64,000 bases of DNA from Limisphaerales bacterium (lineage in GTDB: Bacteria > Verrucomicrobiota > Verrucomicrobiia > Limisphaerales > UBA1100). Location: NCBI GenBank assembly GCA_014382585.1, contig JACNJL010000048.1, positions 1 to 64,000 of the forward strand, in the 5' to 3' direction. The notes beneath the pieces were generated by a model that saw nothing but the letters and a program-made list of their open reading frames with translations, was not told where the DNA came from and did not search any database. The translations under genes and the position numbers were made by a program. Shown in pieces: positions 53,267 to 59,831 of this stretch. Position 1 is the first letter of the stretch. Each line of letters opens with the position of its first letter.

Positions 53267-53545
53267 ATGAATAATGAAATTATACCTTATTTGGAGATGT
53301 GCAAACGTGAAGGATCAAGCCTGCAAAGAGGCATGAATTACCGACTCGGACATGACCACTCAGTTATTTTAATGTCTGTGCGTCCTGGAGCCCCATACGA
53401 AGACCGATTAGAAGACAATGGTGAAACACTTATTTATGAAGGTCACGATATAAACAGAACAAGAACAGGCCCAAACCCAAAAACAGTCGATCAACCAGAA
53501 AAGTATTCAACAGGCAAGTTGACTGAAAATGGAAAGTTTAATTAA
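53267..53545 (+). CDS. SRA/YDG-like domain fragment (N-terminal half of a split SRA-HNH endonuclease)
   Basis: 92 residues. The segment GMNYRLGHDHSVILMSVRPG with YEDRLEDNGETLIYEGHD resembles the SRA/YDG modified-base-binding domain that is fused to HNH nucleases in restriction enzymes recognising methylated DNA. The frame ends (TENGKF-N-stop) where the nuclease half starts in another frame, overlapping it by 17 nt. In fused relatives, as I recall them, the text runs on without a break, so a single-base indel is the simplest explanation. Local base composition is much more AT-rich than the flanking genes, suggesting recent acquisition. It may be non-functional, or expressed as two polypeptides. 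Confidence 0.65.
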   Translation: MNNEIIPYLEMCKREGSSLQRGMNYRLGHDHSVILMSVRPGAPYEDRLEDNGETLIYEGHDINRTRTGPNPKTVDQPEKYSTGKLTENGKFN

Positions 53546-53957
53546 AGCAGCCCAACTAGCCAAGCGGCGCGAACAATTACCAGAACGGGTACGTGTTTAT
53601 GAAAAAATCAAACCCGGGATCTGGACTTATAATGGTGTTTTCCATCTCATTGATTCCTGGCGAGAAAAATCTAATCGAAGACATGTTTTTAAATTTCGCC
53701 TTGTTGCTGTAGAGGGCGACGAAGATTTCTCTCGACCTGTAAGTATTGACATTCCACACAGAAGAATAATACCGACGAATATCAAGTTAGAAGTTTGGAC
53801 TCGAGATCAGGGCCAGTGTGTTGAATGTGGATCGGAAGACAATCTCCACTTTGACCATATCCTTCCTTTTTCAAAAGGCGGAACCTCTATAACAACGGAT
53901 AACATTCAGCTTCTTTGCATGCGACACAACCTTAAAAAATCCGCGAAAATACAATAA
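53529..53957 (+). CDS. HNH endonuclease (C-terminal half of a split SRA-HNH protein)
   Basis: 142 residues. An N-terminal stretch (AAQLAKRREQLPERVRVYEKI, then GIWTYNGVFHLIDSWREKS) extends the SRA part, and a C-terminal HNH nuclease follows with two zinc-binding Cys pairs: CVECGSEDNLHFDHILPFSKGG and the end LLCMRHNLKKS (first pair C-x2-C, catalytic His in FDHI, then Asn/His of the HNH). HNH enzymes cut DNA with a metal ion. No clear ribosome-binding site precedes the ATG, which fits a frameshift rather than a separate gene. No methyltransferase lies near. Confidence 0.75.
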   Translation: MESLIKAAQLAKRREQLPERVRVYEKIKPGIWTYNGVFHLIDSWREKSNRRHVFKFRLVAVEGDEDFSRPVSIDIPHRRIIPTNIKLEVWTRDQGQCVECGSEDNLHFDHILPFSKGGTSITTDNIQLLCMRHNLKKSAKIQ

Positions 53958-53976: not shown

Positions 53977-55446
53977 ATGAAAACAATTGACATTTACTCT
54001 GTTGCATATGCGCTCGTTTTCTTTGCATTTTCACCTGCGGCCGCCGCCAAGCCCAATGTGCTGTTCGTCATTTCGGACGACCTGAACTACGCCCTCGGCG
54101 GAGACGGCCATCCCGAATGCAAGACGCCGAACCTTGATCGGTTTGCCAAGACGGGCGTTAGCTTTACGCGGGCGTATTGTCAGTTTCCGTTCTGTGGTCC
54201 TTCGCGGGCTTCCATCATGACGGGCCAGTATCCGTTGGTGAACGGCGTGATGCGCAACGGAGGCAAGGTCGATCCCAACCGGGTGACCCTTCCCCGGCAC
54301 TTTGCCAACCACGGCTATTGGAGCGCGCGCGTGAGCAAGATCTATCACATGGGCATCCCCGTCGACATCGTGCAAGGAACGTCCGGCCCGGACCATGCCG
54401 CTTCTTGGAGCGAGGCCCATAATATCACCGCCCTCGAAACGATGACGCCTGGCAAGCTGGCCGATTACACGCATCCAGACGCCGCCGAGCATTACCCCGC
54501 CGAACGCGCCAAATGGGCCGCCGCGCATCGTGAAGGGGCTCCCTACAAAATGCATCCCTCCATCCGCGGCGATTACGCCGTGCTCGAAGTAGCGGATAAG
54601 GACACCGGATTACTCGCCGATACCCTGGCCGTCGACAAGGCCCTCGCACTGCTCAAAGGCCGCCAAGGCCAGGCCAAGCCCTTCTTTCTCGCTGTCGGCT
54701 TGGTGCGCCCGCACTTTCCGTTTGTGGCGACCGAGGGCAGCCTTGAACCTTATGATGCCCATCGAATGGCTCATCCGGATTTTCCGCAGGACGATCACGC
54801 CGACATGCCGACCGGCTCCAAGGGACGCATGATGGAGCTAAAGAAAACCGCCGTCCGGGAAGTCCGCCGCGGTTACTACGGCGCGGTCACTTACATGGAC
54901 GCGCAATTTGGCCGCCTCATGAACGGGCTCGATCATCTCAAGCTTCGCGGCAACACCATCGTCGTCTTCGTCTCCGACCACGGCTATCTGCTGGGCGAAC
55001 ATCAGATGTGGAAAAAAGGCGTCCTTTGGAACGAAGCCATCCATGTCCCGCTCATCATTTCCGCGCCCGGCAAAAAGCAAGGCGCGCGCACGAATCACAT
55101 CGTCGAACTCATCGACCTGTATCCTACCCTCGCCGAACTCGCGGGCTTGCCTCCCGAACCCAAGGCCCAAGGGCAAAGCCTCGTACCGCTGTTGAATAAC
55201 CCAGACGCAAAACTCCCGCGTCAAGATGCCTGGACAACCGTCGCGCGCGGCCATGGCCTACGTTCCGGCAAATGGGCCTTCATGTGGTACCCCGCCTCCA
55301 AGCGCACCAAAACCGAAGGATTCATGCTCTACGACATGGAGAAAGATCCGAAACAATTCACCAACCTCGCCAATGACCCCGCCCACGCCGCCATCAAGGC
55401 CAAGCTCTTAGAGCGCTTGAAAGAACGGCTCAATGAAGTAAAGTGA
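53977..55446 (+). CDS. Type I sulfatase, iduronate-2-sulfatase-like (3 of 7)
   Basis: 489 residues with a signal (VAYALVFFAFSPAAAA). Metal motif VISDDLNYALGG and the formylglycine site C73-G-P-S-R (FPFCGPSRASIMTG) are intact; the CGPSR form and YWSARVSKIYHMG fit the iduronate-2-sulfatase-like group. HGYLLGEHQMWKKG marks the catalytic region. Its first 10 codons are AT-rich like the insert just upstream, then composition returns to the local norm. It probably removes sulfate from a glycan and is 6 nt from the next gene's start. Confidence 0.92.
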   Translation: MKTIDIYSVAYALVFFAFSPAAAAKPNVLFVISDDLNYALGGDGHPECKTPNLDRFAKTGVSFTRAYCQFPFCGPSRASIMTGQYPLVNGVMRNGGKVDPNRVTLPRHFANHGYWSARVSKIYHMGIPVDIVQGTSGPDHAASWSEAHNITALETMTPGKLADYTHPDAAEHYPAERAKWAAAHREGAPYKMHPSIRGDYAVLEVADKDTGLLADTLAVDKALALLKGRQGQAKPFFLAVGLVRPHFPFVATEGSLEPYDAHRMAHPDFPQDDHADMPTGSKGRMMELKKTAVREVRRGYYGAVTYMDAQFGRLMNGLDHLKLRGNTIVVFVSDHGYLLGEHQMWKKGVLWNEAIHVPLIISAPGKKQGARTNHIVELIDLYPTLAELAGLPPEPKAQGQSLVPLLNNPDAKLPRQDAWTTVARGHGLRSGKWAFMWYPASKRTKTEGFMLYDMEKDPKQFTNLANDPAHAAIKAKLLERLKERLNEVK

Positions 55447-55452
55447 ACGGTG

Positions 55453-56499
55453 ATGAGATTCTCAATTGCGCTATGTGCACTGGCCATTCTGACACCCGCG
55501 GTAATTGCCGAACCGCCGCCGGCATTGGAGCGTTACCGTAATTTGGAGTTCCCACCGCGACCGGAGAATTTTGACAAGGGTTGGCGTGAACGGGTAGCGC
55601 TGGAATTTGAGATTATCAATCAGGCCAACCTGTCCTCCCTGCGCGCGGGTCTGACTGACAAAAACGAATTTGTACGATCCATGGCCGCCCGGGCGCTGGG
55701 CATTCGTGGAGACAAGGCCTCGGCCAATGCGCTGGCGGAGGTGGCCCGGAAAGATCGGGAGTTCATGGTTCGCATTCGGGCCGTGGAATCACTTGGTCTG
55801 CTCAAGATGAAGGCGGAGGTGATTGAGGCGGCAAAGAAGGATCGCCAAGGCGCTGTGCGCTGGTCGGCTGATTTGGCCGCTGACCAGCTCAAGAGCAAAC
55901 AGGATTGTGCCGGCCAAATTCGGCGGGCGTTTGCGGCGGGCATTAACCGCAAGAAAATGGGCTCGGCAATGATCGGGCAACCCGCTCCGGATTTCACCGC
56001 CCAAACGCTGGACGGCAAGCCCTTCAAGCTATCGACCGTTCTGGGCAAGAAACCCATTGCGCTGTATTTTGCGGCCTTCGATCAATGAGGCGGCTGCATG
56101 CATGAGCAGGCGCAGTTGCGCCTGAAAAAAGAAGAAGTCCTTAAGCTGGGTGCAGAAGTATATCTGATCCAGTCCCATGACCTGCTGCGCACCCGGGTGT
56201 TTAAGGAGGAGAATCGGTTGCTCTCCCGCGGCAACGGCCCGTTCGCCAAACAAAAGAGCCTCGTCTTCAGCACGGCACTGGCTGATCCGGCGGGACAGGC
56301 GGCAGCGATTTATGGGGTTGCCCGCAAATGCATCCGCTGGGGCGGCTGGGTAGAGAACAACCCTTGTTGGTTCGTTATCGATCGCAAAGGCATTCTCACC
56401 TACGCAGCGCATCCCACGTTTGCCTCGCCTACTTCCTATGTAAAGGAAGTTGACGATATGCTAAAAGCACTGGAGCAAGCTTCCCGCCACTCCAATTAG
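55453..56499 (+). CDS. HEAT-repeat/redoxin protein interrupted by in-frame UGA, candidate selenoprotein
   Basis: A signal peptide (SIALCALAILTPAVIA) is followed by HEAT-like helices (about 50-150) and an AhpC/TSA-like redoxin domain (from about 175, IGQPAPDFTAQTLDGKPF). At codon 212 (TGA 56086-56088) the frame continues after the stop with GGCMHEQAQLRL and a full thioredoxin-fold remainder (CIRWGGWVENNPCWFVIDRKG), giving 348 residues. The UGA takes the place of the first Cys/Thr of a CxxC/TxxC redox motif (UGGC). Conventional annotation gives two ORFs, 55453-56088 and 56098-56499. Alternatives are a nonsense mutation, or reinitiation at ATG 56098 with GAGG 7 nt before it. GTG 55450 is another start. 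Confidence 0.72.
56107..56124 (+). promoter_or_regulatory. SECIS-like hairpin just downstream of the in-frame UGA
   Basis: CAGGCGC (56107-56113) pairs perfectly with GCGCCTG (56118-56124) around the loop AGTT (56114-56117). The loop is 26-29 nt after the UGA and has G in its second position and GU within it. This matches what is known of bacterial SECIS elements, which lie in the coding frame shortly after the Sec codon. The hairpin is seen in the sequence; the role is inferred. Confidence 0.5.
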
Positions 56500-56553
56500 C
56501 CCCCGCTAAAAGCTGGCCTTCGCAGGCGCTTTGGTACAGATTCCCCGCCCATT

Positions 56554-58077
56554 ATGATCCGTTTCCTTACGCTTCTCTTTGCACTGACATTGCCCATCAA
56601 GGCCGAGAATCGCCCGCCCAACATCGTGTTCATTTTCATTGATGACTGGGCCTGGAACGGCACCCCGATTGCCTTTGATGAGGCGATGGCCAATTCCAAA
56701 ATGCCCGTGCTGCAGATGCCGCATCTCAAGCGGCTCGCACGCGATGGTATGAAGTTTCGCAACGCCTACGCCTCGCCGCAGTGTTCGCCTTCGCGTGTGT
56801 GTGTGCAGACCGGCCAATCCTCCCCGCGCAATGGCTACACCGTGTTCTCGAATGCGCTCGGGCAGGAATATTTTAACGTCAAGAAATCGCGCGGCCTGCC
56901 GGTGATCTCCTGCATCTCGGATATGACACTCGATCCCGAGGCCGTGACCATTCCGGAGGCGCTCAAGCCGTTGGGCTATGCGAGCGCGCATTTTGGTAAA
57001 TGGCATATGCGCGGCGATCCCGGCGCTGAGGGGTACATCGCGCATGACGGCGATACCACCAACGACCCCGGCAACACCGTGGGCAAAGTCGCCCGCCAAC
57101 CGGATGATCTTACCGACCCCAAGCTGATGTTCAGCGTCACCCAACGCTCGATGGACTTCATCGACGCACAGGCCAAGGCGAAGCGGCCTTTTTACCTGCA
57201 GATTTCCCACTACGCCATGCACGAGGGCCGCGAATGCCTGCCCGCCACGCGCACCAAGTACGTGAAACATCCCGCCGTGCAGGCCTACTACAAGCGCGCC
57301 GGCAAGACCGCCGACAACATCAACCGCAAACAAGACCCCGCCATCTGGCTGGGCATGGCGGAGGATCTCGACCGCTGCATCGGCGACGTGCTCGCCAAGC
57401 TTAAGCAGGCCGGCATTGCGGACAACACCTACGTCGTGGTGATGTCCGACAACGGTTATCGTCACAAGGAACTCAAGCTGCATCCCAAGCTCACCCAGCC
57501 CATGCACGCCCACAAATGGTGGGTGTGGCAGGGCGGCATTCGTGTGCCGATGATTGTGCGCGGCCCCGGCATCCCCGCCGGCAGGACGTTTGATGGCAAC
57601 GTGGTGAACTACGATCTGCTCCCCACCTTCGTCGACTGGGCTGGCGGTCAGCCCGGGAAATTAAAAGACATCGACGGCGTTTCCCTCGCCGACTATTTGC
57701 GCGGCAAAAAACCGGACGAGGCTTTCCTCAAGCGGCACCTCTATTTTCATTACCCGCACAACCGCACCTCCATGCCGCACTCGGCCATTGTCTCCGGCAC
57801 GGACAAGGTCATCCACTTTTACGACCACGACGACATCCCGATGCTCTTCGATCTCGCCAAGGACGAAGCCGAGACGACCAATCTTGCCGGCAAGCATCCA
57901 GAGCGCCATCAGGCGCTCTTCGGTGAGATGATGCGCTACCTCAAGGCCGTCGACGCCCGCATCCCCAAGGTGAACCCGGACTTCGATCCCGAGGCGTACA
58001 AACAAATGGAAGCGTACGAAAAACGCCTGCCCTACGGCCCGTTCAAGGGACGCCGGCCGGCCGGTGATGACGAATAA
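56554..58077 (+). CDS. Type I sulfatase (4 of 7)
   Basis: 507 residues with a signal ([15 protein letters not shown]). [15 protein letters not shown] provides the metal aspartates; the formylglycine site is C77-S-P-S-R. An insertion ([18 protein letters not shown]) before the site is unusual among the seven. [17 protein letters not shown] replaces the common GKWHLG. The sulfatase acts on an unidentified sulfate ester. It lies about 55 nt after the redoxin-like gene and 14 nt before the next sulfatase gene. Confidence 0.92.
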
Positions 58078-58091
58078 TCCTTTAACACTCC

Positions 58092-59831
58092 ATGAAACGA
58101 ATGACACTATTGATCGCGGCACTGCTCATTGCAGTCCCGTTACACGGCGAGAACGCAGACCGCCCGAACATCCTCTGGATTACCAGCGAGGACAATAGCA
58201 TCTCTTGGCTGAGTTGTTACGGTAGTAAAAATGCCAAGACCCCCAACCTAGATCAGTTTGCCAAGGAAGGCTTTCGTTACCTGCACTGCTTCGATAACGC
58301 GGCCGTCTGCGCTCCCACGCGATCTACTTGGATCACCGGCCATTACGCCATCTCCATTGGCACCCAGCCAATGCGAAGCCGTTACAAGATTCCGCACGAC
58401 AAGATTCCCTACTATCCAGACCTATTGAAAGCCGCGGGCTACCACGTTTCTAATGGCGGTAAGACTGATTACAATATCGGCGGCAGAGACGATAAGGATA
58501 CTTGGCGGGTCGATGGAAAACTAGCCAAGCGCCAGCCCGGACAAAAATTCTTCCAAATCCGCAACATAGGGGACAGCCACGAAAGCCGAGCCTTCCCGAA
58601 GAATGCCGGCCAAGTGAAGACTGACCCCGCCAAAATGGTCTTACACGCCTACCATCCTGACCTTCCAGAGATGCGGATGACTTACGCGACTTACACCGAT
58701 GCGGTCCAGCGCATGGACGCCAAAGTTGGTGAAATTCTCGCTCAACTTAAGGCAGACGGACTCGCGGATGACACCATCGTCGTTTACTGTTCGGATCATG
58801 GCGGCGTCTTGCCTCGCAGCAAACGCTTCCTCTATTCGAGTGGAACGCATTGCCCTCTCATCGTTCGTATTCCAGAAAAATGGAAGCATTGGTGGCCCGC
58901 CGAAAAACCGGGGATGACCGTGGATCGCATCGTTAGCTTTGTCGATATGCCTAAAACATTCCTTAGCCTTGCGGGTGCCGCAGTCCCCAAAAGCTACCAA
59001 GGGCGCATTTTTCTCGGTGGCGACATCGAGCCGGCCCCAAAATACCACCTCAGCTTTCGGGAACGAGCCGACGAGTGCTCTGACATGGTCCGCGGCATGC
59101 GTGACGAACGGTATGCTTACATTAAAAACTATATGCCTTGGGCCCCTAACGGACAAAAGCTCCGATACATGTGGACGATGACCGGCACCCAAGCCTGGGA
59201 AAAACACTACCAAGACGGCAAGTGCGATGCGGTGACCGGACGTTTTTTCCGCCCTCGGCCCTCTGAGGAGTTCTTTGATACCGTGAATGACTTCGACAAT
59301 ATCCACAACCTAGCCAACTCCCCCCAACACCGGGCCAAGCTTACCGAGTTGAAACAGGCTTTACGTAAGAAACAATTGGAACTGTTCGACTCGGGTCTGC
59401 TGCCTGAAAACATGCGGGTACGCCGGGCCGAAGCCCATGGGCTGACGATCTACGAAATGGTCCGAGACCCAAAACTTTACCCTCTCGAAAAGTACCTAGA
59501 CTTTTCCGACTTGGCCCTATCCCGAAATCCCACCAACCTGAATCAGCTGATCAAGGGCATGAACGACCCGGACGAAGGGATTCGCTACTGGGCCATCTGT
59601 GGCCTGTTCCTTCTCGAAGAAAAAGCCAAGCCTGCGCTCAAAACTATAGAAAAAGCGCTAATTGACGACAGCACTGAAGTCCAAATGATGGCCGCATGGA
59701 CCCTGCACAAATTCGGAGACCAAGAGAAAGCCGCAGCCGCTTTATCCGCGGTCCACAAGGTCTCGAATAAGGACAAACCCCTTTATGAATCCATCAAGCG
59801 CTGGATGAACGCGGTTCACCCAAAACACTAA
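58092..59831 (+). CDS. Type I sulfatase with C-terminal HEAT repeats (5 of 7)
   Basis: 579 residues with a signal (LIAALLIAVPLHG). The metal motif is ILWITSEDNSISW (SED in place of the usual DD) and the formylglycine site is C73-A-P-T-R, a variant that still fits C-x-P/A-x-R. This form is common in heparan-N-sulfatase-like PVC enzymes. After about residue 480 there are two or three HEAT/PBS-type repeats (DPDEGIRYWAICGLFLLEE; STEVQMMAAWTLHKFGD), which might mediate protein contact. Codon use includes more AT-ending and CTA codons than in neighbours, so transfer is possible. Confidence 0.9.
   Translation: MKRMTLLIAALLIAVPLHGENADRPNILWITSEDNSISWLSCYGSKNAKTPNLDQFAKEGFRYLHCFDNAAVCAPTRSTWITGHYAISIGTQPMRSRYKIPHDKIPYYPDLLKAAGYHVSNGGKTDYNIGGRDDKDTWRVDGKLAKRQPGQKFFQIRNIGDSHESRAFPKNAGQVKTDPAKMVLHAYHPDLPEMRMTYATYTDAVQRMDAKVGEILAQLKADGLADDTIVVYCSDHGGVLPRSKRFLYSSGTHCPLIVRIPEKWKHWWPAEKPGMTVDRIVSFVDMPKTFLSLAGAAVPKSYQGRIFLGGDIEPAPKYHLSFRERADECSDMVRGMRDERYAYIKNYMPWAPNGQKLRYMWTMTGTQAWEKHYQDGKCDAVTGRFFRPRPSEEFFDTVNDFDNIHNLANSPQHRAKLTELKQALRKKQLELFDSGLLPENMRVRRAEAHGLTIYEMVRDPKLYPLEKYLDFSDLALSRNPTNLNQLIKGMNDPDEGIRYWAICGLFLLEEKAKPALKTIEKALIDDSTEVQMMAAWTLHKFGDQEKAAAALSAVHKVSNKDKPLYESIKRWMNAVHPKH

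What the first reader, a model, noticed from the sequence alone, without database searches (positions are those of the whole stretch)
55453..56499. Candidate selenoprotein: in-frame UGA at a redox-active site with a SECIS-like hairpin
Two adjacent ORFs lie in one frame, separated by a single TGA (56086-56088), and together form one signal peptide/HEAT/redoxin-fold protein. The TGA sits where CxxC or TxxC redox residues occur in AhpC/TSA-like proteins, giving UGGC. A perfect 7-bp hairpin with a GU-containing four-base loop starts 18 nt downstream, as expected for bacterial selenocysteine insertion. Sec-containing peroxiredoxin-like proteins are established; the HEAT fusion is not something I know. 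Competing explanations are a nonsense mutation, or reinitiation at ATG 56098, which has a GAGG 7 nt upstream.
Basis: partly seen in the sequence, partly recalled or inferred. Interest (0 to 1): 0.85.

Follow-up and report, generated by a model that had tools for sequence, protein, structure and literature searches.

The report
HEAT-repeat selenoprotein redoxin, UGA-encoded selenocysteine
The apparent stop codon inside this bacterial gene almost certainly encodes selenocysteine at the active site of an exported thiol-redox protein that also carries HEAT repeats; selenocysteine redoxins are well known, but I found no description of this HEAT-fused form.

Summary
TGA 56086-56088 joins two same-frame ORFs into one 348-residue protein: signal peptide, HEAT repeats, AhpC/TSA (redoxin) domain. 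Each half of the redoxin domain alone scores below Pfam's cut-off; joined they score 66 bits. The genome has tRNA-Sec (UCA anticodon), SelD, SelA and SelB clustered on contig C36. A search with residue 212 masked found 62 uninterrupted homologues of the HEAT-redoxin fusion, all with Cys at that position (CPVC), and one Poribacteria homologue with TGA there. Two more Poribacteria homologues also have TGA, and all three genomes have SelB. A hairpin follows each Sec-TGA. The window's hairpin and one Poribacteria hairpin share the loop AGUU and the 25-nt spacing, while three of six shared stem pairs change on both sides. Nonsense mutation and reinitiation are disfavoured. The domain belongs to the known UxxC Prx-like selenoproteins; the HEAT-fused Sec subfamily appears undescribed in the papers I could search. 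The gene occupies a variable slot between two sulfatase genes. Sec incorporation itself is not shown; that needs 75Se labelling or a spanning peptide.

The parts
55453..56499 (+). HEAT-redoxin selenoprotein gene, 348 aa with U212 (a GTG at 55450 is an alternative start)
   Evidence: one frame with a single internal TGA, ending in TAG. Homologous over residues 41-346 to uninterrupted proteins.
55453..55509 (+). putative Sec-type signal peptide, MRFSIALCALAILTPAVIA
   Evidence: Read from the sequence; no predictor was run.
55561..55935 (+). HEAT-repeat region, residues 37-161 (Pfam HEAT_2 hits 53-115)
   Evidence: 42 bits; paired helices, pLDDT mostly 80-98.
55972..56403 (+). AhpC-TSA/redoxin domain, residues 174-317, spanning the TGA
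   Evidence: 66 bits joined; 23.5 and 21.9 bits for the two separate ORFs, both under the cut-off of 26; peroxiredoxin fold (Bcp1 and others).
56086..56088 (+). TGA read as selenocysteine 212 (UGGC motif)
   Evidence: Cys at this position in 62 homologues and TGA in one; two further TGA homologues; it lies between strand 202-207 and helix 213-224, the CxxC position of a thioredoxin fold.
56095..56097 (+). Cys215, the predicted resolving residue
   Evidence: Cys in 63 of 63 homologues.
56107..56124 (+). bacterial SECIS-like hairpin, 7 bp with loop AGUU
53977..55446 (+). upstream sulfatase gene, ending 6 nt before the ATG at 55453
   Evidence: 87-89% identical DNA in same-family genomes.
56554..58077 (+). 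downstream sulfatase gene
   Evidence: 90-94% identical DNA in same-family genomes.

Best explanation
The gene encodes an exported HEAT-redoxin selenoprotein. When the ribosome reaches UGA 56086, the hairpin at 56107-56124 recruits SelB with Sec-tRNA-Sec (UCA anticodon), and selenocysteine is inserted instead of termination. The product is a 348-residue protein. Its thioredoxin-fold domain carries a U212-G-G-C215 redox pair, in which Sec212 most likely attacks the substrate (a disulfide or peroxide) and Cys215 resolves the selenenyl-sulfide. The HEAT repeats would serve as a docking scaffold. Shown by computation: the frame, domain continuity, Sec machinery, Cys/Sec exchange at the exact codon, and a covarying hairpin. 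Inferred: actual Sec insertion, export, the chemistry, the substrate and the role of the HEAT repeats.
For: Frame and domains. Sec machinery in the same genome: tRNA-Sec 67 bits (ARAGORN tca), SelB 333 bits, SelA 472 and SelD 519 bits in one cluster. A second UGA gene in this genome, a peroxiredoxin FTGGU, also found with TGA in several same-family genomes. Cys in 62 of 62 uninterrupted homologues, with the query masked at 212. TGA at the same position in L047, L121 and L122, each genome with SelB. Hairpins of at least 6 Watson-Crick pairs with a loop of at most 4 in all 4 Sec members against 1 of 62 Cys members (Fisher 7e-6, or 9e-5 with the near-identical pair L121/L122 counted once). Same loop and spacing in window and L047, with 3 double-sided compensations. 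Flanks 87-94% identical to same-family genomes, so the contig is not foreign. AlphaFold model pLDDT 81.7 with residue 212 at the CxxC site.
Against: No close relative (none above about 32% identity) was found with or without the TGA, so purifying selection on the downstream part could not be measured. The protein sits on a very long branch. The hairpin is not dominant when the RNA is folded from 56080, and the L121/L122 hairpins are not unusually stable against shuffles. No expression, labelling or peptide data.
Confidence: 0.95

Rival explanations
1. Nonsense mutation: the TGA has recently broken a Cys-type HEAT-redoxin gene.
For: TGC or TGT to TGA is a single substitution. The gene is divergent, on a long branch, and absent from close relatives.
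Against: A random nonsense codon would hit the catalytic Cys codon about 1 time in 348. It would not come with a SECIS-like hairpin (0.26% of TGAs), a complete Sec system, and homologues with TGA at the same codon. No other lesion lies in 1047 nt, and the downstream half keeps coding character and family-invariant residues such as D278, G288, P304, D310 and G313.
Confidence: 0.03
2. Two proteins: termination at the TGA and reinitiation at ATG 56098, giving separate polypeptides.
Against: The cut would fall inside one domain, at its active site. Each half scores under the AhpC-TSA cut-off. All 62 Cys homologues are continuous.
Confidence: 0.015
3. Sequencing or assembly error at the TGA.
For: The window comes from a draft assembly, G000, in 70 contigs.
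Against: The error would have to produce TGA at the one codon where three homologues in other genomes also have it, upstream of a covarying hairpin.
Confidence: 0.005

Closest known systems
Prx-like thiol:disulfide oxidoreductase, UxxC (PF00578), and Redoxin family protein, UxxC (PF08534), as listed in PMC13188914 Table 1; Prx-like UXXC of PMC1088965
   Same: Same domain (PF00578 above cut-off), same UxxC motif, same Cys/Sec exchange, same kind of SECIS.
   Different: The window protein has an N-terminal HEAT-repeat region. The review's main text has no mention of HEAT.
Cys-type HEAT-redoxin proteins (FADWCPVC) of Verrucomicrobiota, Planctomycetota, Bacteroidota, haloarchaea and others; annotated 'redoxin domain-containing protein' in three haloarchaeal plasmids
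   Same: Same two-domain architecture, homologous over residues 41-346.
   Different: Cys instead of Sec; they carry RVMVGKELEP..YWF and IWWPHL stretches that the Sec forms lack; 24-30% identity.
HEAT-redoxin selenoprotein candidates of Poribacteria (L047, L121, L122), found here
   Same: Same architecture, TGA at the same codon, SECIS-like hairpin.
   Different: 30-32% identity; UGYC or UPVC instead of UGGC. L047 adds rhodanese (UxU) and cohesin domains.
Sec peroxiredoxin TxxU (in this genome the FTGGU protein, L033)
   Same: AhpC/TSA fold, Sec at the active site.
   Different: There Sec takes the peroxidatic position; here Sec takes the Thr position and Cys the peroxidatic one.
Prx-like selenoprotein domain fusions reported in the GOS survey (PMC2398784)
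   Same: Fusions of Trx-fold selenoproteins with extra domains are documented.
   Different: The partners named there are Secretin_N-like or unknown domains; HEAT repeats do not appear in the passages I read.

Membership tests
Bacterial selenoprotein | In-frame UGA at a position that is Cys in homologues | tested here: met
   62 of 62 Cys, with 1 TGA homologue; two more TGA homologues.
Bacterial selenoprotein | Host encodes selA, selB, selC, selD | tested here: met
Bacterial selenoprotein | SECIS hairpin just downstream, small apical loop with G (feature stated in PMC1088965; the 16-37 nt spacing is from memory) | tested here: met
   Folded from 56080 an alternative structure wins.
Bacterial selenoprotein | Selenium incorporated in vivo | not testable with these tools
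   Needs 75Se labelling or mass spectrometry.
Prx-like thiol:disulfide oxidoreductase, UxxC (PF00578) | PF00578 match above the curated cut-off | tested here: met
   66.2 bits against 26.
Prx-like thiol:disulfide oxidoreductase, UxxC (PF00578) | UxxC motif at the domain's active site | tested here: met
   U212-G-G-C215; position confirmed and the model.
Prx-like thiol:disulfide oxidoreductase, UxxC (PF00578) | Thiol:disulfide oxidoreductase activity | not testable with these tools
   Enzyme assay needed.
Typical Sec peroxiredoxin | TxxU motif | tested here: not met
   The motif is UxxC.
NCBIfam PrxU NF040737 | Score above cut-off 270 | tested here: not met
   27 bits.
NCBIfam deiodinase family NF038285 | Score above cut-off 250 | tested here: not met
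   26 bits, residues 156-213 only.

The most novel reading that the evidence does not exclude
HEAT-redoxins with Sec form a separate, undescribed selenoprotein subfamily found in unrelated phyla (the window's organism and Poribacteria). They form one side of a branch against all Cys forms, with the HEAT scaffold targeting a Sec active site to a specific exported client.
Probability: 0.5. Interest if true: 0.55.

Novelty: new variant of a known kind. Interest (0 to 1): 0.5.

Why it matters
Standard annotation would split this gene into two truncated ORFs and miss the enzyme. It adds a HEAT-fused subfamily to the UxxC selenoproteins, gives a clean natural Cys/Sec exchange set (62 Cys, 4 Sec) for asking what Sec buys the enzyme, and offers a test case for SECIS covariation across phyla.

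Tried and rejected
Rfam scan of the window and of the locus: no RNA family at the hairpin, and the two weak matches (E 1.3 and 3.6) are unrelated. Single-sequence search of genome contigs found nothing, because its patterns came from this divergent protein; the alignment query succeeded. Viral contigs: no relatives. Orthologues in the same family, order, class and phylum: no TGA-bearing full-length relative, only Cys forms or redoxin-only proteins, some with TGA. Filing as deiodinase, PrxU or SelL-related: scores far below cut-off. Contamination of the contig was considered and rejected, because both flanking sulfatases are 87-94% identical in same-family genomes. The tree grouping of Sec members (98/97) is not taken as proof of a single origin, because the window's branch is very long.

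Full report
Observation. The window frame 55453-56499 is continuous except for TGA 56086-56088. Read through, it is a 348-residue protein with a signal-like N terminus, HEAT repeats and an AhpC/TSA domain. The AhpC/TSA domain bridges the TGA: 66 bits joined, but 23.5 and 21.9 bits for the two ORFs taken apart, both under the cut-off of 26. GC by codon position and codon usage are the same on both sides, with frame 1 the best of six in both.

Sec machinery. The window's genome (G000, 95% complete) has a tRNA-Sec at 67 bits, over the curated cut-off, which ARAGORN also names tRNA-SeC with anticodon tca. On the same contig C36 lie SelD (519 bits), SelA (472 bits), a transglutaminase-like gene (my reading of its translation) and SelB (334 bits) in a row. 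The genome also has a peroxiredoxin with an in-frame TGA in the motif FTGGU, and several same-family genomes have it too, with nearly the same sequence downstream of the TGA.

Homologues. With residue 212 masked as X so that the alignment could not be steered, 63 of the 68 loci fetched could be scored: 62 have Cys at 212, one has a stop, and all 63 have Cys at 215. The stop is TGA in a Candidatus Poribacteria contig (L047, DWUGYC). A search of 85 genomes of that phylum gave two more full-length HEAT-redoxins with TGA (L121, L122, DWUPVC). All three host genomes have SelB over the cut-off. Redoxin-only UxxC genes with TGA are also common in Poribacteria and occur in the window's own order.

Hairpin. 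CAGGCGC-AGUU-GCGCCUG at 56107-56124 folds with -13.9 kcal/mol and z -3.47 when the stretch begins at 56098. From 56080 an alternative wins; I weigh this less, because a ribosome standing on the UGA keeps the first bases unpaired (general knowledge). L047 has UCUCGC-AGUU-GCGAGA with the loop at the identical 25-nt distance. Of the six pairs they share, three are unchanged and three change on both sides. L121 and L122 have a different hairpin, GGAGUUG-GUC-CAACUCC, with its loop four bases nearer to the UGA. Hairpins of at least 6 Watson-Crick pairs with a loop of at most 4 occur in 4 of 4 Sec members and 1 of 62 Cys members. In the window as a whole, the stricter 7-pair criterion is met after 5 of 1946 TGAs.

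Structure. The AlphaFold model (pLDDT 81.7, pTM 0.81; C modelled in place of U) places residue 212 between strand 202-207 and helix 213-224, the CxxC site of thioredoxin folds. Foldseek's best matches are Bcp-type and 2-Cys peroxiredoxins.

Mechanism. Sec insertion by SelB at this UGA is strongly inferred. U at the N-terminal position of UxxC suggests that Sec212 is the nucleophile and Cys215 the resolving residue of a thiol:disulfide oxidoreductase or a thiol-dependent peroxidase; I put the first at about 65% and the second at about 30%, from family knowledge. The HEAT repeats are presumably a docking surface. The client is unknown; the sulfatase neighbourhood is a lead, not evidence.

Context and origin. 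In same-family genomes the two flanking sulfatases are kept at 87-94% DNA identity, but the slot between them differs: G018 has about 1.1 kb with another gene, and G013 is nearly empty (54 bp). The gene is thus an accessory gene within a sulfatase cluster, and the contig is genuine. The tree puts the four Sec members on one side of a branch (98/97), but the window's branch is very long, so one origin is only suggested.

Known or new. UxxC Prx-like and redoxin selenoproteins are established (PMC1088965, PMC2398784, PMC13188914), and domain fusions of such selenoproteins have been reported, but HEAT fusions appear neither in the passages read nor in two literature searches of open-access papers. 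Filing: a new variant (HEAT-fused) of a known kind.

Noticed in passing
L047:2008-3990: One Poribacteria frame encodes rhodanese, cohesin, HEAT and redoxin domains with three in-frame TGAs (rhodanese FYUSUPRE and redoxin UGYC): a candidate triple-Sec protein. The rhodanese part matches NF041203 rhodanese_LYCAU at 104 bits, against a cut-off of 115.
   Followed up: partly
Poribacteria genomes, loci L123-L149: Redoxin-domain genes with an in-frame TGA occur in most genomes of the phylum searched, often several per genome, which suggests large, unannotated selenoproteomes.
   Followed up: partly
L033 (G000 C37:30224-30562): A second selenoprotein candidate of the same genome, peroxiredoxin FTGGU, conserved with TGA in same-family genomes; one genome (L018) has Cys instead.
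   Followed up: partly
window 58092-59831: A sulfatase with C-terminal HEAT repeats lies next to the sulfatase downstream of this HEAT-redoxin.
   Followed up: no
window 55447-56553, against L192 and L193: The slot between the two sulfatases is variable: HEAT-redoxin here, an unrelated gene of about 340 codons in G018 with similar first residues (MMRF), nearly empty in G013.
   Followed up: partly
window 53529-53957: A small ORF with an HNH-endonuclease-like C terminus (CVECG...HFDHILPFSKGG...LLCMRHN) among the sulfatase genes.
   Followed up: no
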